DNA from: Pseudobdellovibrionaceae bacterium
GTDB lineage: Bacteria > Bdellovibrionota > Bdellovibrionia > Bdellovibrionales > UBA1609
Direction: 5' to 3'
DNA: 64,000 nucleotides
NCBI GenBank assembly: GCA_018663505.1
Contig: JABJQG010000048.1
Span: forward strand, 1 to 64,000
A model generated the notes under the pieces. The model ran no database searches, was not told the origin of the DNA, and was given only the letters and a program-made list of their open reading frames with translations. Of the stretch, positions 36,303 through 52,942 are shown piece after piece. The translations under genes were made by a program, and so were the position numbers. Within the stretch, counting starts at the first letter, position 1. Each line of letters starts with the position of its first letter.

Positions 36303-38126
36303 CTATTTAGCATACTGGTTAACGCCATTAGCATCATATTTATGAATTCGACTATTATAAGTATCAGTAACATAAATATATCCTGCAGGGCCTATACTAA
36401 CACCCTCGGGATATAAAAGCCTTTGAAGCTCTGGTCCAGAGTTTCCAAAGCTTAGAAGGTGCGCTCCAGTTGCATCGAATTTTTGAATTCTATTATTATA
36501 AATATCTGAAACATATATATTTCCAGCACTATCAACAGCTACCCCTGAAGGGCTTCTGAACTCAAGGTCCAATGATCCAAAAGAACCAAAAGAAAGTAAG
36601 TGGTTCCATTGTTTATCAAACTTTTGTATTCTATGATTTCCAGTATCAGCGATATAGATATTCCCAGCGGCATCAATTTCTATGCCCTGAGGGTCATCGA
36701 ATTGAGAGTCACCAATGCCAAGTGCCCCAAAATTTGAAATATGATTACCCAGTTTATCTAGCTTTTGAATACGATCGTTCTTTTTATCAACAATAAATAT
36801 ATTCCCTAAAGAATCAACTTTAATACCATGAGGCTGATCAAACTGTAAGTCGCCAGAACCACCTGTGCCTGCGCTAAACAAATGTTGCCCCAGTTTATCG
36901 AACTTTTGAATACGGTCGTTCCAGTTGTCAGTAATATAAATATTTCCAGAGGCATCTGAGGTCACTCCATTTGGAAAATTGAAAAGCCCATCTGTTAAAC
37001 CTCTGCTGCCTATGCTAAAGATATGTGTGCCAAATTTATCGAATTTTTGAATGCGATAATTATTTGAGTCAGTGACTATAACATTGCCTTCAAAATCAAC
37101 TGTAGCTCCTTTTGGCCCAGAAAATTGGCCGTCAAGTTGGCCTTTAGATCTGTATTCAGCAATTATATTTTCAGAAGTATTATAAACTAATATTCTACTG
37201 TTTGGTGGATCCCCAACAATGAGCTGATCCAGACTATTAATAGCTAAACCAGATGGTAGACTGTCTTTCCATATCCTGGGTACATCAATTACGGAGACAG
37301 ATGCGCCAGTGCTGTCAAATTTATCCACACGGTGGCTCCAAAAATTTGCCACATAAACATTTCCTAAACTATCCAATCCCACCTGTTCAGGAGAGTTTAG
37401 GCCTGTTGTGAAATTTAATAAATGTTTAAAGTTACTATCAAATTTTTGAATACGATCGTTGCCAGAATCAGAAGCATAAATGTTCCCAGAACTATCAATT
37501 GTTATGCCATTAAGTTGATTAAAATCACCATTTTCAGTGAGTCCATATTTTCCAAAAGTTAAAATATGAACGCCCAGCTTACTAAACTTTTGAATCCGAT
37601 TATTATTGCTCTCCGAAATAAAAATATTCCCAGTGCTATCAACAGCTATGCCGGAAAGACCTGAAAAAGGATAACTAGCATCCTCTGTGATTGTTAATAA
37701 ATGACCTCCACTTTTATCAAACTTTTGAATGCGGTCATTTAATGAGTCAGCCACATATATATTTCCATTGCTATCGATGGCTATGCCTCGAGGTCTACTA
37801 AATTCACCATCTTCAGTTCCTTCAGAACCAAAACTTAAAACTAATTCGCCACTGCTATTATATTTTTGTATACGATGAAGCCATGTATCAGCAAAATATA
37901 TATTATTTTTACTGTCTGTAACTATTCTATCTGCAGAAATCATATACCATTTGTTTATCCCAAGAGGAAAAATAGAGTCAAAGGTAGGCTCTTTACCAGT
38001 ATCAGTTCCGTTACTTGTATCAGCTGGCGAAGAGTTTGAGCCGCTGGATGAGCTGCAGTTTTGATAAAACACCATTGTTATTAATATTGAAAAGAGGATA
38101 GTAATTTTTTTGAATATATTAACCAC
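36303..38126 (-). CDS. NHL-repeat lipoprotein with 12 repeats
   Basis: A 607-residue lipoprotein. The signal peptide ends in a lipobox-like MVFYQNC with Asn at -1, as often noted in Bdellovibrio lipoproteins. I count 12 NHL repeats of the form GIAVDSxGNIYVxD...RIQKFDKxGxHL; 12 would make two six-bladed propellers or one large one. A Ser-rich linker follows the lipid-anchored Cys. The likely place is the outer membrane or cell surface, with a binding role (protein, carbohydrate or RNA in other NHL proteins). It starts at GTG with AAGGA seven bases upstream. Confidence 0.9.
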   Translation of the reverse strand: MVNIFKKITILFSILITMVFYQNCSSSSGSNSSPADTSNGTDTGKEPTFDSIFPLGINKWYMISADRIVTDSKNNIYFADTWLHRIQKYNSSGELVLSFGSEGTEDGEFSRPRGIAIDSNGNIYVADSLNDRIQKFDKSGGHLLTITEDASYPFSGLSGIAVDSTGNIFISESNNNRIQKFSKLGVHILTFGKYGLTENGDFNQLNGITIDSSGNIYASDSGNDRIQKFDSNFKHLLNFTTGLNSPEQVGLDSLGNVYVANFWSHRVDKFDSTGASVSVIDVPRIWKDSLPSGLAINSLDQLIVGDPPNSRILVYNTSENIIAEYRSKGQLDGQFSGPKGATVDFEGNVIVTDSNNYRIQKFDKFGTHIFSIGSRGLTDGLFNFPNGVTSDASGNIYITDNWNDRIQKFDKLGQHLFSAGTGGSGDLQFDQPHGIKVDSLGNIFIVDKKNDRIQKLDKLGNHISNFGALGIGDSQFDDPQGIEIDAAGNIYIADTGNHRIQKFDKQWNHLLSFGSFGSLDLEFRSPSGVAVDSAGNIYVSDIYNNRIQKFDATGAHLLSFGNSGPELQRLLYPEGVSIGPAGYIYVTDTYNSRIHKYDANGVNQYAK

Positions 38127-38633: not shown

Positions 38634-41264
38634 TTGCTAGCAAAAACTAAAACGATACTCAGCTTAAGCTTAATTGTTTCACTGGCCTTTATTGGCTGTA
38701 CAAATGACACCACTGAGCGCCAAGCTCCTATCAATAATTACTTTAATTTCGACAAAGTACCTAGTGAAAAACAGGATATTACAGTCAAAGCACCTCCTGT
38801 AAAAGAAGAAGTCAGTAAAGATCCTATTGTTATTGAAGATTCCCCCACACAACAGGACCCTTTATATGGCTCAGATGTAGCTAAGGTTAAACTTCACAAA
38901 TCAGCTCTAAACACTGAGTTTTTACTGCAAGGTCAAATTGTTCGCCAAGCACAAATTCCAATGTTTAGTAATATGAAAAGTCGTATTGTTTACTTCCTTC
39001 AAAGCCATAATCAGATACTTATGCTTGAAGCCAGCGAAGGTCACTTGGTCACTAAGGATCTACCTCAGTCACTCATTATTGCAAGCTTTGATATCATCAG
39101 TGATAATGGAGAATTTGTTAGCTTTGATTTTAATCAAGGCATGAACAAAGTATTTCATGTTAGCGACTGGAGAGGTAACGAAGGCGCTCCTGATTATAAC
39201 AAAGAGTTTAAAACTGCTGAAGTTAAAAATAGTTTTATTGATAAAGCCTACTTTTCTAACAATGATGAATTTGTCATTAAACAGGTGGCATTAGTTGCTG
39301 ACAGTGGATTCAATACACCTTATGTGCTTAAATATTACCTCAGTTTGCACAAAGAAAATTTGAGTTTTAAGCCAACTAAAGCTCCTGCAAATTATGATAA
39401 ATTTGCATTTTTCCAAATAGCTCCTCAGTATTTGTTAGATGGCAATACCGTTTCTTATGCTTCAAAACATGATGTAAGCAAGGCCGTTACATATGCCGTT
39501 AGCGCAAATACACCCAAAGAATTTAAACAGGCTGTAAAAGATGGTGTGCTCTACTGGAATAAAGCTCTGGGCAGAGATGTGTTTAAAGCTATTGATGCTC
39601 CAGAAGGAGTTTCTGCACCTAACCCTAATTATAATGTTGTTCAGTGGGTGAACTGGGATCAAGCTGGATTTGCTTATGCAGATGCACAGATGAACCCAAG
39701 AACTGGCGAAATCACACATGCACAAGTATTTATGACTAGTGTTTTTGCTGTAAGCTCTCTTGCTCGAGCAAAAAGTTATTTAGAAAAATTAAAAAAGCAA
39801 AAACCAGAACAAAGACTATTTGTTGCAGGTTTAGAGCAAAAGCCCTTATGTAATGCTTTTGCAAAATCAGAACCTTACCAAAATGCCTTAAGACAATTGG
39901 TAGAAATGGAGGCTTCTGATTTACAAGTTCTTGAAGTGTCTAGAGATTATATTCGTGAAGTTATGGCTCATGAAATTGGCCATACAATGGGGTTAAGACA
40001 TAACTTTGCTGCCTCCATGGCCACTAATATTAAAGAATCTGAAAGAGAATCTACTTTTAAAAAGTATATAGTTTCTATGGATGCTCCAGAAGGCGTTATT
40101 CCTTCTAATAGTGTTATGGAATATAATAATTTTTATGAAGCATCTCTTATGGGTGACATCATTGAAAAAAATGCTGAAGCTCTAGATTATGACACTAAAG
40201 TGATTCAGTATTTATACGATGGAAAGGTACCTGCTAGCTGGCCTTTATATTGTACAGATGACCACACTGCGGCTTATTCCGATTGTAATCGTTTTGACAC
40301 AGGAAGTAACTTAGCTGAACATATTAAACTTGCTGACCAAAATACGATTCAAGGATTACCCTTGAGATTAATAAACAACTTTGGGCGCGCCAAGGCTGAA
40401 AAAAAAGATTTAGAATTAATAAGCATTTCACCAAAAAGCATGGTGGACAGGATTAAAACGGATCAACAGTTACTTTATAAGCTACTTAGTCAACAAGCCT
40501 TACATCTAAAATCCTTTAGAAGTTATAAACTTGTAGATAGTTTAAATATTAAGAACGTTCAAAAAACTCAACAACTTGCTGTAATAGAAATGATAAAAGT
40601 AGCTGGTGGATCTGACAATTTTACTGAAGCCCTACTCAATGTATTTCCTGTGATAGAGAGCCATATGCACGGCCCTCTATACCATGGAATGGTTGATATG
40701 CTAGACAGTGGAAAATACGACACTTGGACCAGTAAAAATGGTGACGTTGTGAACTTCACAGAAGAAGATAAAAATATCATGAAAACTAAAGCTCATGCTT
40801 ACTTTGAAGCTTTAGAAAAACAGCTGGTTCTTCTGGATATAGCCAATGTGACTTCATTGACTTTTGAAGACAATATGCTCACTGAAAATATGATTGAGTT
40901 TTTAAATCATAAGTTACAGAAATACGTATTAGAACTTAAAGGCGATGAACATCTTGCCGAACCAGAAACTAGTAATAAATATAGTTTTCAAATCGATGAA
41001 GTTTTATACGAAGGCGAGCTTAAAGTATTTGCAAGAGATACTGAAATACGCAAAGCGGCTTCTCAGTTACTAGCAAGTACTCGTGCAAAAATTCCAGGAT
41101 GGGCACAGGCTGAGCGATTTATAAATGCAAAAAAATACAATGAACTTTTTAAATCTTCATTTAAAGATAGCAAAATTCCTGACTTAAACCGTCCAGAAGT
41201 ACCTCAAAGTGTACGTCGTTGGATTTTAGAAAATACAGGTATCGGCGCTGGCTTAGCTATGTAA
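38634..41264 (+). CDS. Zinc-dependent metalloprotease lipoprotein (metzincin type)
   Basis: An 876-residue lipoprotein: the signal peptide ends LSLAFIGC-like (LAFIGC), then a linker. The catalytic motif HEIGHTMGLRH (His446, Glu447, His450, His456) fits HExxHxxGxxH, and NSVMEYNN about 45 residues later is a good Met-turn. The layout fits the family of bacterial zinc-dependent metalloproteases with a large C-terminal helical domain (DUF4953-like). It should degrade proteins at the cell surface, a plausible role in a predatory or scavenging lifestyle. It starts at TTG after GGGGGT. A strong terminator follows. Confidence 0.88.
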   Translation: MLAKTKTILSLSLIVSLAFIGCTNDTTERQAPINNYFNFDKVPSEKQDITVKAPPVKEEVSKDPIVIEDSPTQQDPLYGSDVAKVKLHKSALNTEFLLQGQIVRQAQIPMFSNMKSRIVYFLQSHNQILMLEASEGHLVTKDLPQSLIIASFDIISDNGEFVSFDFNQGMNKVFHVSDWRGNEGAPDYNKEFKTAEVKNSFIDKAYFSNNDEFVIKQVALVADSGFNTPYVLKYYLSLHKENLSFKPTKAPANYDKFAFFQIAPQYLLDGNTVSYASKHDVSKAVTYAVSANTPKEFKQAVKDGVLYWNKALGRDVFKAIDAPEGVSAPNPNYNVVQWVNWDQAGFAYADAQMNPRTGEITHAQVFMTSVFAVSSLARAKSYLEKLKKQKPEQRLFVAGLEQKPLCNAFAKSEPYQNALRQLVEMEASDLQVLEVSRDYIREVMAHEIGHTMGLRHNFAASMATNIKESERESTFKKYIVSMDAPEGVIPSNSVMEYNNFYEASLMGDIIEKNAEALDYDTKVIQYLYDGKVPASWPLYCTDDHTAAYSDCNRFDTGSNLAEHIKLADQNTIQGLPLRLINNFGRAKAEKKDLELISISPKSMVDRIKTDQQLLYKLLSQQALHLKSFRSYKLVDSLNIKNVQKTQQLAVIEMIKVAGGSDNFTEALLNVFPVIESHMHGPLYHGMVDMLDSGKYDTWTSKNGDVVNFTEEDKNIMKTKAHAYFEALEKQLVLLDIANVTSLTFEDNMLTENMIEFLNHKLQKYVLELKGDEHLAEPETSNKYSFQIDEVLYEGELKVFARDTEIRKAASQLLASTRAKIPGWAQAERFINAKKYNELFKSSFKDSKIPDLNRPEVPQSVRRWILENTGIGAGLAM

Positions 41265-41441: not shown

Positions 41442-42452
41442 TTGAAAGCATTGGTTGTACGATTTTCTAGTTTTGGTGATATCTTTCATGGTCTTGAAGG
41501 GGCCTGTAGGCTTAAGGACTCTGGCTTTGAAGTTCATTGGGTCACTCGATCTGACTATGCTGATCTGTTAGAGACAGTGCCTGAAATTCAACAGATATGG
41601 TCCCTGGAACGAAAACAAGGTGTCTTTGGTTTAATTCAATTAGCCCTAAAACTTCGCTCACAAAAGTTTACTCATATTTATGATGCTCATAACAATTTAA
41701 GATCGTCTATTTTAAGCCTCATCATAAAAATCCCCCTTTTAGATCGTAAGATTAAATTTGTTCGCAGATCAAAAGAGCGCATAAAACGCCTGCTTTTGTT
41801 TAAATTAGGTATCAATAAGCTACCGAACCCCTACTTTTCTTCACAATCATTTATAAAACCAATTGAAACTTGGATAAAAAATCACAAAAGGAACCTTCAA
41901 AGGCAACTCAATACCGAACATGTGGATTTGCCTGCGGGGGTCTTAAATCAACTTACTCAATTAAATACTATTGTCATTGCCCCCTCAGCTGCTTGGGAAA
42001 TGAAACGATGGCCTGTGGATTATTGGAAACAATTAATCACACAATGTAATGAAAATAATTTTTTGATTTTAGGTGGACCTGAAGATGACTTTTGTGAAGA
42101 AATTGCCCGCGTTGCCCCAGAACGAGTTACAAATCTTGCAGGTGAACTTTCATTATTAGAAAGTTCAAAAGTCATATCTAAAAGTAAAATTTTAATTTCT
42201 GGTGATACTGGGCTAATGCATTTAGCCGACTTTTTAAATATACCACTCATAAGTTTCATCGGTCCGTCCGCTTTTGGTTTCCCGAGTAATAAGAACTCCA
42301 AATATATATTTAAAAACTTAGAATGCCAGCCTTGCTCCAAAGATGGTAGAGGTGCGTGCCATAATAAAATTTATAAAAACTGTTTAATACAAATTAAGCC
42401 CACTGAGGTTATTGAGGAAATAAAAAAAATTAGTAATATGGGGCTATTGTGA
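41442..42452 (+). CDS. Glycosyltransferase family 9 (heptosyltransferase type)
   Basis: A 336-residue GT-B enzyme that should add heptose or a related sugar to the LPS core from an ADP-sugar on the cytosolic face. The N-terminal RFSSFGDIFHGLEGACRLK and the C-terminal LISGDTGLMHLADFLNIPLISFIGPS are family hallmarks; a Cys cluster (CQPCSKDGRGACH) is also seen in many heptosyltransferases. It starts at TTG with GAGAG upstream. It is followed 120 bp later by KdtA in the same direction, fitting an LPS core locus. Confidence 0.88.
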   Translation: MKALVVRFSSFGDIFHGLEGACRLKDSGFEVHWVTRSDYADLLETVPEIQQIWSLERKQGVFGLIQLALKLRSQKFTHIYDAHNNLRSSILSLIIKIPLLDRKIKFVRRSKERIKRLLLFKLGINKLPNPYFSSQSFIKPIETWIKNHKRNLQRQLNTEHVDLPAGVLNQLTQLNTIVIAPSAAWEMKRWPVDYWKQLITQCNENNFLILGGPEDDFCEEIARVAPERVTNLAGELSLLESSKVISKSKILISGDTGLMHLADFLNIPLISFIGPSAFGFPSNKNSKYIFKNLECQPCSKDGRGACHNKIYKNCLIQIKPTEVIEEIKKISNMGLL

Positions 42453-42572
42453 TTTTTTACAAACTCCTTTTAAAACTCATATGCCAATGCCTACTCCTGA
42501 AATATTATGTTTCACAAGGCTGTGCCTTTTTGCATGCTTATAGTTTTATACAACCGAACAGAGGTTATTGAT

Positions 42573-43838
42573 AAAATGTTTTTCCTATTTCGATTTTTTT
42601 ATTTGTTTATGATATTACCTTTTGTTTTTTTTATAAGCTTAATCTTGTATATATTTGGCCATAGAAAAATCACTCAAGGTTTAAAAATGAGATGGCCTAT
42701 TGATGGCAAACTGCCTTGGCAAAAACACCCAAAGCAAACAAAACCCATTTGGTTTCATTGCTCTTCTGGAGAATTTGAGTATGCCAAACCTGTCATTACT
42801 GGAATCAAAAAAAGAAATCCTAATACAAAAATTCTTGTTACTTATTTTACTCCTACTTATAAAAAGAACATAGAGGCATTCCCTTTAGTGGATTACTCCT
42901 GTCCTTTACCATGGGATCTTCCAGGACCTATGAGGCAGTTTGTCCACTATCATCAACCTGAGTGTTTATATATCTCTAGGACCGATCTTTGGCCTGAAAT
43001 GCTTAACCAGACAAAACTTGCAAACATCCCCACATACTTATTTTCAGTTACAGCTCAAAAAACGAATATAAAAAACATTATTGCCCAGTGGCTGAAAAAA
43101 ATATTATTAACAAAAGTGGATCGCATTTTTTGTGTTTCTAAAAGTGACGCCATTAATCTAAATTCACTTACTGATAAAAATAAAGTCATAGTTGTTGGCG
43201 ACACAAGATATGACCAAGTTTTTGTGCGTCTAAGTCAACCAAAGCCCTTAGATGTTAATCTAAAACCTAATAAATTATGTTTCATTATGGGTTCCACTTG
43301 GCCACAAGATGAGAAAGTTTTATTCATATCTCTTGCTAAGGTAATAAAAGATAACGATATGCAGGCCATTATCGCTCCTCACGAGCCCACAGAGGAACAT
43401 TTAAAACAACTGTCACAATATGCAAATAAATCAAATCTAAGCTTTAGACTTTATTCTGAAGCCAAAGACAATGACTATGATCTCTTAATCATTGATAAGG
43501 TAGGTATACTCGCTGAACTTTATGAGTGGGCAGATATTGCATTTATTGGAGGTTCATTTAAAAAGTCAGTACATAGTGTGATGGAGGCCTTAGCTTCGGG
43601 ATGTTACTGTATAGTTGGGCCTTGTCATAAAAACAACAGGGAGGCCATTGAATTTCAAAACCAGCAGTTACATGACTCTTCTCTAGTGACATGTGTGAAT
43701 AATGCCCAAGAGCTCACGGATACCATTCATCAATTAGCCAGCAATTGTATAAGACCAAATAGTAAAGCAGATATTGTTAAACTAATAAAATCCAAAACTG
43801 GGGCTACAGAAAAATTACTTCAGGAAATACCTAGATAG
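42573..43838 (+). CDS. waaA: Kdo transferase (3-deoxy-D-manno-octulosonic acid transferase)
   Basis: Adds Kdo from CMP-Kdo to lipid A precursor at the inner membrane. The N-terminal anchor (FFLFRFFYLFMILPFVFFISLILYI) precedes the family motifs IWFHCSSGEFEYAKPVI, ILVTYFTPT, YISRTDLWPEML, FCVSKSDAINL, GDTRYDQV, FIMGSTWPQDEKVL, IIAPHEPTEEHL and AFIGGSFKKSVHSVMEAL. I chose ATG 42573 because homologues begin with the anchor; the frame is open to ATG 42507. The ordinary GGHN-type motif reads GGSFKKSVHS. At 421 residues it has normal length. Confidence 0.92.
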   Translation, partial: KMFFLFRFFYLFMILPFVFFISLILYIFGHRKITQGLKMRWPIDGKLPWQKHPKQTKPIWFHCSSGEFEYAKPVITGIKKRNPNTKILVTYFTPTYKKNIEAFPLVDYSCPLPWDLPGPMRQFVHYHQPECLYISRTDLWPEMLNQTKLANIPTYLFSVTAQKTNIKNIIAQWLKKILLTKVDRIFCVSKSDAINLNSLTDKNKVIVVGDTRYDQVFVRLSQPKPLDVNLKPNKLCFIMGSTWPQDEKVLFISLAKVIKDNDMQAIIAPHEPTEEHLKQLSQYANKSNLSFRLYSEAKDNDYDLLIIDKVGILAELYEWADIAFIGGSFKKSVHSVMEALASGCYCIVGPCHKNNREAIEFQNQQLHDSSLVTCVNNAQELTDTIHQLASNCIRPNSKADIVKLIKSKTGATEKLLQEIPR

Positions 43839-43943: not shown

Positions 43944-46900
43944 TTAGGGAGTGTAATCGCGTTGCTGCTGTAATGCGTTCGTACTTTTCACAGAGTAAGC
44001 TGGTTTAAATTTACCTTTGAATTTTTCAATTTCTTCATTCGTCTCACCATAAATAATATCATACAGGTCACTTGATGGGGGAAATTGCACTTCGTCTTTT
44101 AATGGTGTGTATACACCATAATATGATGGCACAAAGTTAAGGTACACATCTGTTAGCCTATCCATTGGGAATTTTAGCTTTTCTGCGGCCCATTGATCTA
44201 CAGATTTATTAAACATATCATCGTAGGTAAAGGGTGCTGGGTCAGCTTGCATGGCCGTTAAAAACCTTACAAAGTCTGCATCACCACGAATCCTTAATAA
44301 CCATGGATGATTGTATATATCTCCTGGATCTAAGATGTCACCTTCAGTGAAATGTTGAGTAAAGTAGTAATAACGTTCATCAAAACGATAAAGCTCATTT
44401 GTAGCATCTTTGTTAATATGTCGCTCGCCATCACATAATAAAAAGCCTCTATCAAGGGCAGTATTCCAAGCCTCTTTTTCCCAACTTTCCATAGCTAGGA
44501 CTTGTGACAAGCTTTTCATTAATAGAGAGTTCAGAGTGAGCCTACGTTCCTTAAGCCGATTAAAAGAATCTTCACCAAACACACTAAATAGCTCATCCAT
44601 AAATGCAGGGTTCCATTTTAAAATCATACATTGGTCAAACTCTTTTATTGAAAAGTTAACTGTAGCTTGTTGCATTGCTAAATAAGTCCCTTGACTAATA
44701 TTAGCACCAGAAGACTTTGTAGTTCCTTTATCGTCACTGACTCGAATATTAAAACCAGTAAAGTTAAACAAAGCTGACACTCCTGGAATCATACCGAACA
44801 AGGATTTCATTGTTTCTGTGGGAGAAACAGACTTACTCATACCAATTTTCATGGACTTGCCGATACCAACATGAGAACCCACATTAATGTTCATGGATTT
44901 TCCACCTTTATAGATCACTCCAGGGTGAATGTTTTTAACAAAAAGCTTCGTTTCTGTGTGAAATGGTGAGGTTCTTCTTTTTTCCCTACCTGTAAGTTGC
45001 TCATTTTTTTCTAAACCTAAAATACAGGCATTATATACAAAACTAAAGGAGCCAAATTTTGCAAAAGAGTCCATGGTGCTGCCACGCTTGGCTATCAAGT
45101 TATATTGGTCGAAAATGTTATGCGTGAGTTTATTACATAAGATTGACTTGTAGTCATTGTGGTTAGCGTGCTCTGTATCCATTTCATGATTAGCAATATA
45201 GTACTTAAGCCAATCATAAAAGCCTGACTTCATTTTAGCTGCATCCGCTTCAGGCTGATCATAATCTTTAAACTGATATATATATGACAGACCTTTACCT
45301 AAGTCTTTTTTATAAAAATCCTCGGCAAGTTGACTGTACTGGTCTGTGGGGAAACACTCTACATTTTCGTCAGGGTGACCCGAGTTATTACTTTCAGAGG
45401 TTAAGGCCGACACACTGGTTTTTCTTTTCATTTTTACACATTCTTCTAACTTTCTGTCTTTTAGATCCACATGTGTAACATTCATTGAACGAACAAATAA
45501 AGCTGATGAACTTTTTGCTTTCATGGTTCCAAGTTCTTCTTGATCTCTCTCTTGTTTTTTCATAATCAAGTGATCCACTTGGATGTTTTCTAAATAAGAG
45601 ATATCCCCATAGTACTGAGAGCTTTTCTTTTGCTTAGCCTTATTTTTATCATACTCCATGGCATCTTCGCGCTCATCACGTAGTTTTGCTAAATTCTTCT
45701 GGTCTTCATCTTTATTCAGGAGTTTTGAAAAATACATATCAAATGCACTTTCTTTTTCTTTACCTGAAAATGTTTCCCCTTTACCAGAGGGAGTCTGGTA
45801 AACATGCATACGATCGTTAGCTTTAATTTGCCCACAATCAATTTCTGTACAAAAACTTTCATCTAAATTGTCGGTGGGTCTTACTGAGGAGTGGTTACCA
45901 TTTAATAAAAATGTCACTGGGCCAACAAATGTTCTGGCGCTAAGTCCCGAATTGGTATCTATAAGTGTACTTAAATCCACATTCGGTGCCGCTGAATTTA
46001 AAGTAAAATCGTAGTTATTTCTTTCCAGTTTTGCACGATCAATAATTTTATTATCAAAACCATAGATAACATCATGGACTTTTTCTCCATTACTGGTTGT
46101 CCTCTCTACTTCAAGCCCTTTAATATCGATATATGGAGCTTCTTTTCTTAAATCATTTACCTCTAAAGTGCGCAGCTGCTCATGAAGTTGATTTAACCCC
46201 ATACTTTTTGCATTTTTAATATCTTTTAACTGTTTCTGTAATACTTTTTGGTCCGCAATGAACTCACTTGTGTCTGCTCTACGCATAAGATGGTTTAAAA
46301 AATATCGTCTTTCTTTTTCTGTAAACAAATACTTAAACTCATTATCATTTCTTGTATCATCATCTGTAAGCACTCTTTCTCGATTTTCAGTGAACTCATT
46401 AATCATTTTTTCTACTGTTTCTGAGGAATACCCCATTTTAAACTTTCTAAATACTTCTACTTGGTTTTCATTTAGTGATTTTTCTAAAACGTTAGCCTTA
46501 AATAGTTCTTCTTCATTAATGGTTTCCAGTTGAATTAACATTTGAGACCGTATTCTCATGAGTCGTAAATCAGTCATGGATAATTCTACTGGGGTAATAA
46601 TGTGTCCAGCATTTACTCGAACTAATTTCTGTTCCACAGTAATAAACTGTTTCGGCTCAATGGTTTTTAATGCCTCTTTTGATGTATCAATTTTAAATAC
46701 ACCCCCGTCACTCTTTTTCAAAACGCCTATATGTGCTGCGGAATTGGCTCCTGAGGGCATATCCTTATGATCACTAGTAATAGCTATGCCTTTTGAGGTG
46801 GGATCCAGGTAATCCTTTAAAATTCCTATTTTCATTAGATAAATACCATCTCGCAAACGCTCTATGGCTCGACGACCATACTTTAGAGAAGAATAGCGTA

Positions 46901-48755
46901 ACACAAAAGGGTTGGTTCTTAATAAAACAGTTTTAAATACCTTCAACTGTAAGAATCGATCGATTTCGTACCTGAACTGCTGGGTCACATACGAAAAATT
47001 ATTAAGAAAGAATCTTGATGGGGGTTTACTATCTAACACAGCTTGAATTTTTGAAAGTTGATGATTGGTAATTTTACTCCCATCTTGTCCAAAGACACCA
47101 TAAGAATCAGCCCAGGGATTAACCCGAGCCACCAGGGTTCTTTTATATTTTTTGCCAGAGCTTTTCATGTACACATGCGCCTTTGGAAAATAGAACCTTT
47201 CTACTTCATAGTATTTATGAAGTACGCTGTGATAAATCGTACCACAACCATCCTTATCCACATCTAATTTCCGCCACTCACCCCACTCACTTTCCGACTC
47301 CGGCTTGCTTCGATCAGTGCTGGCATCACTTGTTTCCAATTGATAGTCAAAGTCTGTATAACCTAGCTTTGTTCCAGTAAACGGATCACTGAAACATGTT
47401 TTCATGGTAAAACTAATGCTTCTTTTAGTGGCTGTCTCACCTTCTCCTACATAAGAGTATTGAACACTCAACTCGGTCATTTCAAAGGATTCTACTCCTG
47501 AAGTGTCTGTAATTTTTCCACCAACAGCCTCTAAAGATTTGTTCACATATTTATCATAATCAAATCTATCTTCATCCAAGTACTTTTTAGGGTCCAATGG
47601 AAGACTGCCCTTGCCAATTAGTCTTTCAAATCGGCCCAGCTGGAATAACCCATCATAAGCTTTCATGTCTTTTCCTGGACCAAGAGGGACCATTCGCAAA
47701 ACAAGTTTCAACTCTTTGTTTGTAGCTCTTAAAACTAGATTAGTTTGAACATTCACATTTAAAATTCCGCTATCATCTCGGATTTCGGCAATACCCGGTC
47801 TAAAGTTACCCGAGATCATCATGCTCTGAGAGCCCTTAGCCCCCACGCCCTCTGCAACAATATGTGCGTATACTTTAAAACGACCTGAATCAACTGGGAT
47901 TTGAATGTTTTTACCATTCACAGAAACCACTTCCGCTTTAGGACGCAAACTTAAATCAATACTCATACGATGGTTAGCTGCGTTTAATCCCTCCATTTCT
48001 ATACCATTGATCTTTTCTTGAAAGTTGGTATATACGGAATCATTTGTCACATTATCACTGTCTCTTAGGGTATCTACTGAAACTTTGTAGGAATCTACTT
48101 TCTCTAATCTGATTTTTGCTGTTTCGGTCTGGGCATCTAATTGAGCTTGGTTATAAACTAAATTTGCCTTTTCTTTGTGGTTTAAATCTAGTTGATGAAG
48201 GGGTTTTCCTGGGGATATGCCTTTGCCCTTGGAACGCAGTTCGGACCAAGGATTAAAGGCAAACTGCACATTCCACCAACCTTTATGAGTGCCTTTACCT
48301 GAGATGCGATATGTTTTTAGTATGTATCTGGCTTGATAAGCAAAATGGTCAAAGTTTACAGAATCGTTCCACTCAAAACAGCCACTATCATCTGTTTTCA
48401 CCTCTATCACTTCCCCACTTACATCTACATAAAATGGAAAGCCTTCTGGAATTGATTTTTTTGTGTTTTGATCTTGAACACATATTTTAGGAATATAGTG
48501 TTTTGTTTTTGCGTATTGCCAACCATCTTTAGTTACATAAATTAACTTTTTTCCCCGGGCTGACATTTTGACTACTTGAAAAGTGTATTGATTGGAATGA
48601 ATAGGAAGTTGTTCTTCACCTTCAATATTAAATGTTTTATTTTGTGAATCCCCTTGCACTTTTGTATCCTTGGGCACACTGGGCTTAAAGCAAGCTGTGA
48701 GCAGCAAGGATATAAAAATAATTAAGCTTACGTCTATTCTTTTAGAAACTAGCAT
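43944..48755 (-). CDS. Giant lipoprotein with duplicated Ig-like Cys domains, unknown function
   Basis: About 1603 residues. The signal peptide ends in LLLTAC, so it is a lipoprotein. Two homologous beta-domains are visible: each has a Cys pair (92/126 and 454/504), a D-x-x-G-C turn and ends in NPW (169-171 and 546-548). The middle is helical and charged; the C-terminal third contains Gly-rich and amphipathic segments. ATG 48755 is preferred because GGAG sits seven bases upstream; the frame is open to ATG 48779. It overlaps the end of the upstream outer-membrane barrel gene by 14 bases, so the two are coupled. I recognise no family. Confidence 0.8.
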   Translation of the reverse strand: MLVSKRIDVSLIIFISLLLTACFKPSVPKDTKVQGDSQNKTFNIEGEEQLPIHSNQYTFQVVKMSARGKKLIYVTKDGWQYAKTKHYIPKICVQDQNTKKSIPEGFPFYVDVSGEVIEVKTDDSGCFEWNDSVNFDHFAYQARYILKTYRISGKGTHKGWWNVQFAFNPWSELRSKGKGISPGKPLHQLDLNHKEKANLVYNQAQLDAQTETAKIRLEKVDSYKVSVDTLRDSDNVTNDSVYTNFQEKINGIEMEGLNAANHRMSIDLSLRPKAEVVSVNGKNIQIPVDSGRFKVYAHIVAEGVGAKGSQSMMISGNFRPGIAEIRDDSGILNVNVQTNLVLRATNKELKLVLRMVPLGPGKDMKAYDGLFQLGRFERLIGKGSLPLDPKKYLDEDRFDYDKYVNKSLEAVGGKITDTSGVESFEMTELSVQYSYVGEGETATKRSISFTMKTCFSDPFTGTKLGYTDFDYQLETSDASTDRSKPESESEWGEWRKLDVDKDGCGTIYHSVLHKYYEVERFYFPKAHVYMKSSGKKYKRTLVARVNPWADSYGVFGQDGSKITNHQLSKIQAVLDSKPPSRFFLNNFSYVTQQFRYEIDRFLQLKVFKTVLLRTNPFVLRYSSLKYGRRAIERLRDGIYLMKIGILKDYLDPTSKGIAITSDHKDMPSGANSAAHIGVLKKSDGGVFKIDTSKEALKTIEPKQFITVEQKLVRVNAGHIITPVELSMTDLRLMRIRSQMLIQLETINEEELFKANVLEKSLNENQVEVFRKFKMGYSSETVEKMINEFTENRERVLTDDDTRNDNEFKYLFTEKERRYFLNHLMRRADTSEFIADQKVLQKQLKDIKNAKSMGLNQLHEQLRTLEVNDLRKEAPYIDIKGLEVERTTSNGEKVHDVIYGFDNKIIDRAKLERNNYDFTLNSAAPNVDLSTLIDTNSGLSARTFVGPVTFLLNGNHSSVRPTDNLDESFCTEIDCGQIKANDRMHVYQTPSGKGETFSGKEKESAFDMYFSKLLNKDEDQKNLAKLRDEREDAMEYDKNKAKQKKSSQYYGDISYLENIQVDHLIMKKQERDQEELGTMKAKSSSALFVRSMNVTHVDLKDRKLEECVKMKRKTSVSALTSESNNSGHPDENVECFPTDQYSQLAEDFYKKDLGKGLSYIYQFKDYDQPEADAAKMKSGFYDWLKYYIANHEMDTEHANHNDYKSILCNKLTHNIFDQYNLIAKRGSTMDSFAKFGSFSFVYNACILGLEKNEQLTGREKRRTSPFHTETKLFVKNIHPGVIYKGGKSMNINVGSHVGIGKSMKIGMSKSVSPTETMKSLFGMIPGVSALFNFTGFNIRVSDDKGTTKSSGANISQGTYLAMQQATVNFSIKEFDQCMILKWNPAFMDELFSVFGEDSFNRLKERRLTLNSLLMKSLSQVLAMESWEKEAWNTALDRGFLLCDGERHINKDATNELYRFDERYYYFTQHFTEGDILDPGDIYNHPWLLRIRGDADFVRFLTAMQADPAPFTYDDMFNKSVDQWAAEKLKFPMDRLTDVYLNFVPSYYGVYTPLKDEVQFPPSSDLYDIIYGETNEEIEKFKGKFKPAYSVKSTNALQQQRDYTP

Positions 48756-50079
48756 AATCGGTCTCCAATTGAATTTCATAAAGCTCGTAGGAACTATCTT
48801 GTATGTTAGTTTTTATAAGAGGGTCTGCTTGTTTATATAAAAAGTTAAGGTTAAAACCATTTTTCTTGAATTTCCACTTAAGAGCAGCGGTTTTTATTTC
48901 ATAATTTGTGCCTAACATTTGCCATGATAAATATTTTGCTGGCACAGCGTCTGACTCTATAAAGGAGTATCTAAACTCTGGTTGAATTACGTAATCCTTT
49001 AAGCGAAAACCCATTCCTAGATTCACATGTTGAGCTTTAGAGCGATCAAAAACTGCTTTTTCATTTTTTAACATGCCCGCTCTGAGGTAAGGGCCATTTT
49101 CAGTACCACCAAATGTAGTGACTACAATACCAGAAGCCCAGCCTTGAAAGTCATAAGCAAATTCACTTTGTGCTCCTGAGCCTAAGCCTGTATTGCCCAT
49201 AAGCCGGGAGCTCTCGGCAACCACTGAGGGTAAGTCAGAATACTTAAATAAAGCGCCATAGCCTTCTACGGTTATATTTTTGTGAAGTGCATATTGCAGA
49301 GTGAGGGTCTCAGTTTGTAAGCTAGGTTGCACTTCTTTTTCAATACGCTCTGAAGAAAAACTACTAGAAGTGGGTACCACCTGTTGTGCTGATAAATTTG
49401 CACGAATTTTTTTACCCCAGTTAATATCGGCGCACTCCATTAAACCTGGAAAAGCTCTTGAACCAGATATGAATAAACTTGATGGTACTATCCCTTGGTT
49501 AATTGCTCCAATACCAAAACAGGCCTGTTTAATAGGGCGGTATACAACCACAGCTTCTTTTAGGCTTAAAAAATTACCAATGCTTCTTTGAAATGTTTCT
49601 TGTAGATAAGTGGACTGGAAACCAGCGCCAAGGTGCATGAAAAATGAGATATCTGAATTAAAATTATAAAGTGATTTAAAATTACCTAGGGCAAAGGCAG
49701 ATGTGGCCATTTGGTCATCACCTTGGGCTGAGCCACTCCCTGTTTTGAACTTCCACCAACCTTTAAACTTACTTTTAAAGCTTTGATCTTTATCATCTAA
49801 AAGTTTAAAATTTTCTGTACGTTCAATGAGAGGCTTGGATAATTTGTATTTGGAATAAAAAGTTTCAGCCTGGGATGGAGAGAAAAAAAGAAGTATTAAA
49901 ATAAAAGTAGCGCAAGTGGTCAGCAAGTTTCTCAAGAAAGAAAAACTCATCCCTAAAGTAACAGCCTGCATAGACCGTCTCATAACCGAGGACTCACGTT
50001 TTTTGATTTCATGCTCCTTAAACAATTTGGCTGTTTCCATGGGTATATCATATACAATACTCATGCAACAGCTAAACAT
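48742..50079 (-). CDS. Outer-membrane beta-barrel protein coupled to the giant lipoprotein
   Basis: Up to 445 residues. A signal peptide (LLTTCATFILILLFFSPSQA) precedes ETFYSKY, then alternating strands typical of a porin-like barrel with a C terminus ending in an aromatic (TDYASF). The protein has only a few Cys residues (CFGIGA, MECADIN). The start is uncertain: ATGs at 50079, 50064, 50040, 49983 and 49950 are in frame and none has a strong ribosome site; 49983 or 49950 would place the signal peptide near the N terminus. The 3' end overlaps the giant lipoprotein gene. The two probably form one surface complex. Confidence 0.75.
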   Translation of the reverse strand: MFSCCMSIVYDIPMETAKLFKEHEIKKRESSVMRRSMQAVTLGMSFSFLRNLLTTCATFILILLFFSPSQAETFYSKYKLSKPLIERTENFKLLDDKDQSFKSKFKGWWKFKTGSGSAQGDDQMATSAFALGNFKSLYNFNSDISFFMHLGAGFQSTYLQETFQRSIGNFLSLKEAVVVYRPIKQACFGIGAINQGIVPSSLFISGSRAFPGLMECADINWGKKIRANLSAQQVVPTSSSFSSERIEKEVQPSLQTETLTLQYALHKNITVEGYGALFKYSDLPSVVAESSRLMGNTGLGSGAQSEFAYDFQGWASGIVVTTFGGTENGPYLRAGMLKNEKAVFDRSKAQHVNLGMGFRLKDYVIQPEFRYSFIESDAVPAKYLSWQMLGTNYEIKTAALKWKFKKNGFNLNFLYKQADPLIKTNIQDSSYELYEIQLETDYASF

Positions 50080-50956: not shown

Positions 50957-52942
50957 TTAAAAGCCATGAAGAGCTTCAAAAGTTGCTTGGGGCACCATCT
51001 GGCAGCATCGTACTGTGGCGGTCTGTGTGCCTGATTTATCTCCACCAGTACAATAATAATTTGAATTATAACTCCAGATATAAGCGTTGGTACTGCCCCC
51101 CATGTAGTGACAAGAATCACTAACCAAAAACCAGCTCGGTTTACACCCAATTGCTGTTGCAACAGAACCTCCTGGGTTATGGTGTCCGGTCCAACGAACA
51201 AAAACACTGTCTGTTGCAGGCCGGCTATCACTAGTAATCGTTTGATAACCTGAAGCTATAACTGTTGTATCATCATCATTGGATGTCCCCGTGAGGCATG
51301 TCCAGGTTTTGCTTGTTGGTTTGCCCTTTAACAAAGCTTGGCCCCCAGGAAGATTTGAAAATGAGGCTATCATTTTTTTATTAGCTACAGCATACAAGTA
51401 ATCTTTTTTAGCTAAATCAGTTGTTGGGGAAATGTTAACACACTCAGGAACTCCCGCTGTAGAAAACCCCACTAATACCTGCCCTGCGAGAGGACACCTT
51501 GCAGAGTTAGCTGCATCAGAATATACTTGGGTGACTTTTCCAGAATAAGCCCCTGAACTTGGAACACCAGTTATTGAGTTACGAACATCGCTACTTGTCC
51601 TAATAGTATCTGTGACATTAGAGATAGATACATCACAGTTGTTAGTTACGCCATTCCAAACAGCGGTAATATGGGTTTCGTAGCCAGCATCTGCATTATG
51701 ATTAAACGCATTACACATACTCTGTAATTTTGTATGTAAATAGCTCTTGTTCCAAATACACACTCGTCCGCCAATACTGTTAGAGTCGCCTCTAGGAAGT
51801 CCGCCGTTAGTGGTACATAGCGTATCAAATTTTGCTCCTAAAACCGCAGTTAGGTTACAGGAGGCCGCTGAAGAGGCATCTCCACTAAATGTTCCACCGA
51901 GTTTTGTGCACAAATTAGTTATAGTTCCATTGGTGCCACCTGTAGATGTAATGTTATCGCACTGAAACGAGCCAGCATGCTGAGGGCTACCCCCAAGCTC
52001 ACGACAGGCGGAAATTAAACCTGGGAAGTAACACAGGGTTCCGGTAACGGCGTCTGGTGTGTATATGCCAGCCGCAAAAGTCCCCCAAACACCACCTACA
52101 CCACTGCAAGATGCCGCCGCCACGGTACCTGTATTACTGGTTGTGGTGCAGACCCCATTATCCGTAACAACGTTGGCTAACCCAGTGAGGTCTTCACAAA
52201 TTTTATCAGTATCTAAAGCACAGATGCTGGTGAGAGAGTTCCATGTGCCTTTAATATTATCTCGACAAAACTGCTCAGGAAAGCTTGTGGTAATGGATGC
52301 TCCACGAGTAAAATTAAAAGAGTACATGTCGCTATTAAAAGGTATTTTGAGTCTTTCAGAATTTGGATAATAATTAAGTCTTCCTGAAACTCTTAAGCTA
52401 GAATTGGCTGAAGAACAATTACCAGTACATTGTGGAACATGGTAAAGCTCTAAAACAAAGGGACACTTATCGTCACCATCAGGAACATTGTCCGCATTAG
52501 TATCTGCAATACCTGCATCAGTGACCCTGCAAGGCACTCCAGCAAGAGTATATCCTCTCCTATTGAAATCAGCATCATTTGGAGTAAGAGCAATAGCCGC
52601 AGATCTATAAACAGCAAAATGATTTAACACAGGAACAGCTAGGGCTTCATTATTTTCTGTAACAACGGTTGTGCCACAAAAAGGGTTTGCACCGTCAAGG
52701 CAGGCAAATGAGGTATTTGCAACATGACTTCTGGTAATGAGCCAAAGAGTATCGTTTTGAACCAATGATTGAACTTCATTTTTTAATGACGTAGCTACCA
52801 TGCGTATTTGATTTTTTTTATTATCCATATTCATATTGACGATCATTCTGGCCATACCAGCACTGATGACGGCCATGATGCCAGTGGTGACCATGACTTC
52901 CATCAATGAAAAACCTTTTGAATTTCTAAACATTTTTTTCAT
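50957..52942 (-). CDS. Large pseudopilin-like protein with tandem Cys-loop modules
   Basis: A 661-residue protein. The N terminus has a class III prepilin signal: SKG10-F11SLMEVMVTTGIMAV with Glu at +5, followed by the usual long hydrophobic helix; a prepilin peptidase should cut after Gly10. The C-terminal part is far larger than in ordinary pilins and holds about seven modules of the form C-x(2-3)-GG-x(8-20)-C (for example ACRELGGSPQHAGSFQC and LCTKLGGTFSGDASSAASC). The end has a domain with WTGHHNPGG and YYCTGG. It may be a minor pilin with an exposed adhesin-like tip. AAGGTG precedes the ATG. Confidence 0.82.
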   Translation of the reverse strand: MKKMFRNSKGFSLMEVMVTTGIMAVISAGMARMIVNMNMDNKKNQIRMVATSLKNEVQSLVQNDTLWLITRSHVANTSFACLDGANPFCGTTVVTENNEALAVPVLNHFAVYRSAAIALTPNDADFNRRGYTLAGVPCRVTDAGIADTNADNVPDGDDKCPFVLELYHVPQCTGNCSSANSSLRVSGRLNYYPNSERLKIPFNSDMYSFNFTRGASITTSFPEQFCRDNIKGTWNSLTSICALDTDKICEDLTGLANVVTDNGVCTTTSNTGTVAAASCSGVGGVWGTFAAGIYTPDAVTGTLCYFPGLISACRELGGSPQHAGSFQCDNITSTGGTNGTITNLCTKLGGTFSGDASSAASCNLTAVLGAKFDTLCTTNGGLPRGDSNSIGGRVCIWNKSYLHTKLQSMCNAFNHNADAGYETHITAVWNGVTNNCDVSISNVTDTIRTSSDVRNSITGVPSSGAYSGKVTQVYSDAANSARCPLAGQVLVGFSTAGVPECVNISPTTDLAKKDYLYAVANKKMIASFSNLPGGQALLKGKPTSKTWTCLTGTSNDDDTTVIASGYQTITSDSRPATDSVFVRWTGHHNPGGSVATAIGCKPSWFLVSDSCHYMGGSTNAYIWSYNSNYYCTGGDKSGTQTATVRCCQMVPQATFEALHGF

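What the first reader, a model, noticed from the sequence alone, without database searches (positions are those of the whole stretch)
43944..50079. Translationally coupled outer-membrane barrel and ~1600-residue lipoprotein with duplicated Ig-like domains
The barrel gene and giant lipoprotein gene overlap by 14 bases. The lipoprotein holds two copies of a Cys-paired domain ending in NPW that I cannot assign. Barrel plus lipoprotein pairs often form surface import, export or adhesion machines, so this could be an undescribed envelope complex.
Basis: partly seen in the sequence, partly recalled or inferred. Interest (0 to 1): 0.62.

Follow-up and report, generated by a model that had tools for sequence, protein, structure and literature searches.

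The report
Coupled outer-membrane barrel and giant lipoprotein
Bacteria related to the predator Bdellovibrio carry a conserved pair of overlapping genes that encode a pore-like outer-membrane barrel and a very large membrane-anchored partner protein, very probably the two halves of a cell-surface machine that I found no description of.

Summary
A 16-stranded porin-like barrel gene (48742-50079, minus strand) overlaps by 14 nt a lipoprotein gene (43944-48755, 1603 aa, lipobox LLTAC). The lipoprotein has two homologous Cys-paired domains ending in NPW (profile-profile E 4e-17) seen in no other protein family of 40 related genomes. Neither protein has a Pfam or NCBIfam match.

The pair is an ancient unit. 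Across 369 Bdellovibrionota genomes both genes occur in 143, the barrel alone in 21, the lipoprotein alone in 9; several barrel-only genomes prove to hold a shorter lipoprotein directly downstream. The overlap is exactly 14 nt in 38 of 47 pairs; the lipoprotein's Shine-Dalgarno lies in the barrel's last codons, GAG kept over GAA (30/32 against 38% background). Duplicated pairs stay together in both trees. The locus is tied to Kdo transferase, heptosyltransferase and FabMG genes. The barrel's predicted extracellular loops are more conserved than its strands, unlike ordinary porins.

Best reading: a fixed-ratio, two-component outer-membrane complex in which the lipoprotein caps or gates the barrel. 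The complex is inferred, not shown; substrate unknown. A second, sequence-unrelated family of overlapping barrel+lipoprotein pairs exists in the same phylum. New variant of a known kind.

The parts
48742..50079 (-). Outer-membrane beta-barrel gene, 445 aa from the first ATG (the true start may be a later ATG); signal peptide, then a mature region taken as 48745-49866
   Evidence: ORF; 16-strand AF2 model, pLDDT 78.7, pTM 0.75; porin fold, VIA Z 25.3 to OmpM1
43944..48755 (-). Giant lipoprotein gene, 1603 aa, lipobox LLTAC
   Evidence: homologues in 152/369 genomes of the phylum
48742..48755 (-). 14-nt overlap of the two genes
   Evidence: exactly 14 nt in 38/47 pairs
48763..48766 (-). GGAG Shine-Dalgarno of the lipoprotein, inside the barrel codons for Leu-Glu-Thr, 7 nt before the ATG
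   Evidence: codon bias of the conserved Glu p=4e-11
48195..48596 (-). NPW domain 1 (Cys-paired beta sandwich)
   Evidence: model region D1
47598..48107 (-). beta-rich domain 2
   Evidence: AF2 of homologue L082, mapped
47097..47504 (-). NPW domain 2 (Cys-paired beta sandwich)
46506..47027 (-). beta-rich domain 4 (most conserved central block)
44982..45602 (-). helical region
44607..44981 (-). two long predicted strands around a low-charge, Gly-rich tip (candidate membrane-contacting hairpin)
   Evidence: the tip itself is low confidence in the model
44103..44447 (-). C-terminal region with YYYFTQHFTxGDxLD...NHPWLLxxRG motif
42507..43838 (+). Kdo transferase WaaA, conserved convergent neighbour
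   Evidence: PF04413 E 2.4e-32; synteny
41442..42452 (+). heptosyltransferase (GT9), conserved neighbour
   Evidence: PF01075 E 2.4e-26; synteny

Best explanation
The two genes encode a dedicated two-component outer-membrane complex. The lipoprotein's ribosome-binding site and start codon lie inside the barrel's last codons, so both are made from one mRNA at a linked ratio (overlap and its conservation shown; coupling itself inferred). The barrel folds as a 16-stranded porin-like channel (predicted). Its long extracellular loops L4, L5 and L7 carry most of its most conserved residues and form the docking site or gate (inferred). The giant lipoprotein is anchored by its lipid and docks with its string of beta-sandwich domains, including the two NPW repeats, against the barrel; its C-terminal long-stranded hairpin may touch the membrane (inferred, weak). 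It most likely acts as a cap or gate that makes the channel selective. The standing link to Kdo transferase, heptosyltransferase and FabMG points to work at the LPS-bearing envelope rather than an accessory role.
For: Co-occurrence: both 143, barrel only 21, lipoprotein only 9, neither 196; Fisher p 1.5e-66, inflated by shared ancestry. Several barrel-only genomes hold a divergent shorter lipoprotein directly downstream with a 14- or 17-nt overlap (L090-L092, L097), and the short forms of three of four groups tested are homologous by profile (99.4-100%). Overlap exactly 14 nt in 38/47; conserved Glu GAG 30/32 vs 38% background, p 4e-11. Mirror-tree r 0.76 vs permutation maximum 0.32; second-copy pairs L038, L040, L054 cluster together in both trees. 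Barrel: 16 strands, OmpM1 Z 25.3. Long loops more conserved than strands, JS 0.414 vs 0.330, p 2e-5. Synteny across several families and gene orientations.
Against: No physical interaction was or could be tested. Lone barrels (L093, L094, L096, L109; L098 lost the lipoprotein) and lone lipoproteins (L061, L067) exist. In L099 and L100 the two are about 5 kb apart. The lipoprotein model is only moderate (pLDDT 68.5, pTM 0.49), so domain contacts are unknown. Conserved loops could be an internal plug rather than a docking site. Mirror-tree correlation is raised by shared species history. Linkage to LPS genes may be inherited gene order only.
Confidence: 0.55

Rival explanations
1. The barrel is the export and display device for the lipoprotein: the lipoprotein passes through or is flipped by its cognate barrel and then stands on the surface as a large adhesin or binding protein, for example for prey contact.
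For: Near-strict 1:1 pairing with overlap; beta-sandwich string resembling adhesin and macroglobulin-type domains, weakly; large size variation of the lipoprotein, about 700-1940 aa, fits a surface protein.
Against: A 16-stranded porin-size lumen is small for a folded giant protein. No similarity to Slam, secretion or autotransporter families in Pfam. The barrel loops, not the strands, are the most conserved part.
Confidence: 0.2
2. The pair works in outer-membrane lipid or LPS homeostasis, like MlaA with OmpC: the lipoprotein's hairpin sits in the membrane beside the porin and moves or senses lipids.
For: Neighbourhood of Kdo transferase, heptosyltransferase and FabMG kept in different orientations; the most hydrophobic stretch of the lipoprotein falls in the hairpin tip in 14 of 33 members where about 1 is expected from length; low-charge alternating segment.
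Against: No MlaA match. The tip is not more hydrophobic than shuffled sequence in most members and is modelled with low confidence. Gene order may be conserved by descent.
Confidence: 0.15
3. The two proteins are unrelated in function and merely share an operon for expression reasons.
For: Lone barrels and a few lone lipoproteins exist.
Against: Pair kept through duplication and across families, with the same 14-nt dual-coding overlap and concordant trees.
Confidence: 0.1

Closest known systems
16-stranded general and specific porins (OmpM1, OprB, OprP, OmpF/OmpC)
   Same: Strand number, size and fold: VIA Z 25.3 (OmpM1, rmsd 3.8, 299 aligned), 22 (OprB), 21.5 (OprP)
   Different: About 7-12% identity, no Pfam match for the window barrel; near-constant lipoprotein partner; conserved rather than variable long loops
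MlaA-OmpC/F complex
   Same: Lipoprotein working with a 16-stranded porin
   Different: MlaA is a small protein of another family (no match here); here the partner is about 700-1940 aa and encoded next door
SusCD / TbpAB barrel-lipoprotein pairs
   Same: Co-encoded barrel and large lipoprotein, lipoprotein as possible lid
   Different: 16 predicted strands and no TonB-dependent receptor signature or plug domain; no SusD or TbpB match
PopA (Bd0427), major OMP of Bdellovibrio bacteriovorus (PMC12228718)
   Same: 16-stranded barrel in the same phylum
   Different: PopA is pentameric with an alpha-helical plug; the model here shows no such plug, and the passages of the paper found by search name no lipoprotein partner
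Alpha-2-macroglobulin / TEP1 / C3 MG-domain strings
   Same: String of beta sandwiches; weak fold resemblance over model residues 22-479
   Different: Z at most 7.7 with rmsd about 24 over several domains: not evidence of membership

Membership tests
16-stranded porin fold | 16 antiparallel strands closing a barrel, short turns on one side and long loops on the other | tested here: met
   16 strands in AF2 model, turns 2-6 residues, loops up to 29; OmpM1 Z 25.3
16-stranded porin fold | Trimer and open channel | not testable with these tools
   single-chain model only
SusC / TonB-dependent receptor | 22-stranded barrel with N-terminal plug and TonB signature | tested here: not met
   16 strands; no Pfam match
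MlaA-OmpC | Lipoprotein of the MlaA family | tested here: not met
   no MlaA match in Pfam for any of 33 members
[quoted passage not shown]
   no helical plug in the monomer model; oligomer not tested; not listed by fold search, which does not exclude it
Bacterial lipoprotein | Signal peptide with lipobox and Cys +1 | tested here: met
   LLTAC in window; lipobox found by pattern in most members with an intact 5' end; Cys22 invariant
Alpha-2-macroglobulin / MG-domain proteins | MG domain array with sequence or strong fold match | tested here: inconclusive
   weak Foldseek and VIA matches only; no Pfam match
Translationally coupled gene pair | Overlapping start/stop with ribosome-binding site inside the upstream gene, conserved in relatives | tested here: met
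   coupling in vivo not tested

The most novel reading that the evidence does not exclude
A lipoprotein-gated porin of a new kind: a giant lipoprotein docks on the conserved outer loops of its cognate 16-stranded barrel and also inserts its own long beta hairpin in the outer membrane, forming a shared machine used by Bdellovibrionota at the LPS-bearing surface. The second, sequence-unrelated barrel-lipoprotein family in the same phylum would be an independent invention of the same plan.
Probability: 0.15. Interest if true: 0.75.

Novelty: new variant of a known kind. Interest (0 to 1): 0.52.

Why it matters
Barrel-lipoprotein pairs such as SusCD, LptDE and BAM are central outer-membrane machines, yet this phylum-wide pair has no family name and I found no publication on it in the library searched. 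A genome whose size matches B. bacteriovorus Tiberius exactly carries an intact pair, so it can be tested in the standard predator. If it is an envelope complex, it bears on how predatory bacteria build or use their surface. The dual-coding overlap is also a clean natural case of a Shine-Dalgarno conserved inside a protein's C-terminal beta signal.

Tried and rejected
Pfam and NCBIfam scans of both window proteins, and Pfam scans of 33 homologues each, gave no credible family; one barrel member matched Porin_5 at E 1.5e-4. Sequence search of solved structures with both profiles gave nothing credible. The first genome-contig scan with the single protein found nothing; the scan with a conserved subset found 19 loci, all titled Bdellovibrionota MAGs. 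SusCD and MlaA membership rejected on signatures. A transmembrane-helix or glycine-zipper reading of the hairpin tip was considered: the tip is positionally favoured but mostly not more hydrophobic than shuffles, so it is left as a lead. D2/D4 as a second duplicated pair: hhalign only 4.6%, not claimed. The idea that the pair is missing from the epibiotic P. exovorus and so marks prey invasion was weighed: the genome matching its size (G042, by my memory) lacks type I but has an unrelated type II pair at the same locus, and type II also coexists with type I elsewhere, so no lifestyle claim is made. PopA paper searched for a link: none found. The lipoprotein-barrel complex could not be modelled (size cap). 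PopA did not appear in the fold-search tables.

Full report
Observation. On the minus strand of the window, a barrel gene (48742-50079, 445 aa from the first ATG) is followed by a lipoprotein gene (43944-48755, 1603 aa) with a 14-nt overlap. The lipoprotein has a lipobox (LLTAC). It is a single copy in this genome. Neither protein matches Pfam or NCBIfam at a credible level.

The repeated domain. Profile-profile comparison of the first and third domains gives 98.8% probability and E 4e-17. In 20 copies the two Cys and the terminal Asn-Pro-Trp are invariant. A search of 40 related genomes with a profile of the domain gave matches in long frames of this lipoprotein family (and fragments of it), typically two per protein. 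In the AlphaFold2 model of homologue L082 these domains are beta sandwiches with good local confidence. Fold searches give only weak matches to adhesin and macroglobulin-type domain strings (best Z 7.7 at rmsd 24), too weak to name the fold.

Distribution and pairing. Among 59 close relatives 42 have the lipoprotein. Across 369 genomes of the phylum the barrel profile matches 164 and the lipoprotein profile 152; 143 have both, 21 the barrel only, 9 the lipoprotein only, 196 neither. Fisher p is 1.5e-66, but genomes are related, so this overstates independence. Fetched neighbourhoods show the barrel directly upstream of the lipoprotein in nearly all complete loci. Some barrel-only genomes hold a shorter lipoprotein directly downstream that the profile missed: L090, L091, L092 (14-nt overlap) and L097 (17 nt). 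Profile comparison shows three of four groups of short forms are homologous (99.4-100%); the fourth is uncertain (64.6%). True exceptions: lone barrels L093, L094, L096, L109; L098, where a Bdellovibrio-genus genome has lost the lipoprotein; L099 and L100, where lone barrel and lone lipoprotein are about 5 kb apart; lone lipoproteins L061 (first copy) and L067.

Coupling. In 47 pairs the overlap is exactly 14 nt in 38, 17 nt in 3, and 1, 4 or 8 nt in 6. The lipoprotein's GGAG lies within the codons of the barrel's C-terminal Leu-Glu-Thr. The Glu is GAG in 30 of 32 barrels, against 38% GAG elsewhere in the same genes (p 4e-11; related sequences, so the p value is optimistic). The barrel's C-terminal motif ETx(Y/N)(V/A/D/E)xF thus serves the beta signal and the next gene's start at once. 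The conservation is shown; translational coupling is inferred from it.

Co-inheritance. Barrel and lipoprotein trees of 30 pairs correlate at r 0.76; the best of 2000 permutations reaches 0.32. Shared species history contributes. The stronger point is that in three genomes with two pairs each, the second pairs (L038, L040, L054) form one clade in both trees, so pairs duplicate and persist as pairs.

Barrel. AlphaFold2 gives 16 strands, pLDDT 78.7, pTM 0.75. VIA-align places it with OmpM1 (Z 25.3), OprB (22) and OprP (21.5), at about 9-12% identity. By usual outer-membrane topology the turns of 2-6 residues are periplasmic and the long loops extracellular. Long loops are more conserved than strands (mean JS 0.414 vs 0.330, p 2e-5) and than turns (p 3e-4), mostly in L4, L5 and L7. 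General porins usually show the opposite (established knowledge, no control run here). A docking site, gate or folded-in plug would explain it.

Lipoprotein C-terminal part. A helical region is followed by two long predicted strands around a low-confidence, Gly-rich, low-charge tip. The most hydrophobic 19-residue stretch lies in that tip in 14 of 33 members, where about one is expected by length, though it seldom exceeds shuffled sequence. I treat a membrane-contacting hairpin as a lead.

Neighbourhood. The pair sits beside Kdo transferase WaaA, a GT9 heptosyltransferase and, in many relatives, the divergent enoyl reductase gene FabMG. Of 40 loci fetched, 22 show WaaA, 23 FabMG and 12 GT9 although many contigs are cut. 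The link survives different orientations: convergent in the window, codirectional in L102. It may reflect function at the LPS-bearing envelope or inherited order.

A second family. Genomes lacking this pair (L110-L117, L119, L121) have another overlapping barrel+lipoprotein pair, in many with an 11-nt overlap, beside or near the same LPS genes. Its barrel and lipoprotein are unrelated by profile to the first (hhalign 1.2% and 0.1%). This barrel occurs in 289 of 369 genomes and often coexists with the first type.

Which organisms. The 19 loci from the named collection are Bdellovibrio, Bdellovibrionales, Bdellovibrionaceae, Pseudobdellovibrionaceae, Bdellovibrionia and Bacteriovoracaceae MAGs. 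G048 has one contig of 3,988,594 bp, exactly the size given for B. bacteriovorus Tiberius in PMC3539863; it carries the pair (L049). G042's length, 2,657,893 bp, matches Pseudobdellovibrio exovorus JSS by memory only.

Reading. I commit to a fixed-ratio two-component outer-membrane complex in which the lipoprotein caps or gates the barrel (0.55 for the complex; the gating role is less certain). Rivals: the barrel displays or exports the lipoprotein; lipid or LPS homeostasis as in MlaA-OmpC; mere operon sharing. What is shown is the conserved pair, the overlap, the repeat and the predicted barrel fold; association, location and substrate are inferred. The library searches gave no description of this pair; the library lacks most subscription papers and no supplements could be read.

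Noticed in passing
L110:10828-14533, L111:10629-14307, L112:3482-7163, L113:3479-7199, L116:3741-7524, L119:11529-15462, L121:11092-15082: A second, sequence-unrelated family of overlapping barrel plus lipoprotein pairs beside or near WaaA/GT9; its barrel is found in 289 of 369 genomes of the phylum, with a weak EF-hand-like hint in one lipoprotein.
   Followed up: partly
L110:1-3575, L112:12601-17134, L113:13925-17999: A further copy of that second pair type (lipoprotein about 1000 aa, 11-nt overlap) in the same neighbourhood.
   Followed up: partly
L065:7578-8639: A lipoprotein of the first family preceded, with 4-nt overlap, by a beta-rich 353-aa protein that does not match the barrel profile: a possible swapped or very divergent barrel.
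   Followed up: partly
L098:11115-12251: A Bdellovibrio-genus genome (G196) keeps the barrel with an altered C-terminus but has lost the lipoprotein gene at this locus.
   Followed up: partly
L069:5198-6418: A second barrel homologue, divergent from the first pair and next to FabMG, without its own lipoprotein.
   Followed up: no
L069:3155-3279: A lipoprotein split by an in-frame TGA in a MAG (G023): pseudogene, frameshift or assembly error.
   Followed up: no
window 38634-41264: Putative lipoprotein with a met-zincin (DUF4953) protease domain, next to the LPS genes.
   Followed up: no
window 50957-52942: 661-aa protein with a pilin-type N-terminal methylation motif and many Cys, upstream of the barrel.
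   Followed up: no
window 36303-38126: 607-aa putative lipoprotein made of repeats of the form GxxxDSxGNIYVxDxxNxRIQKFD (beta-propeller-like).
   Followed up: no
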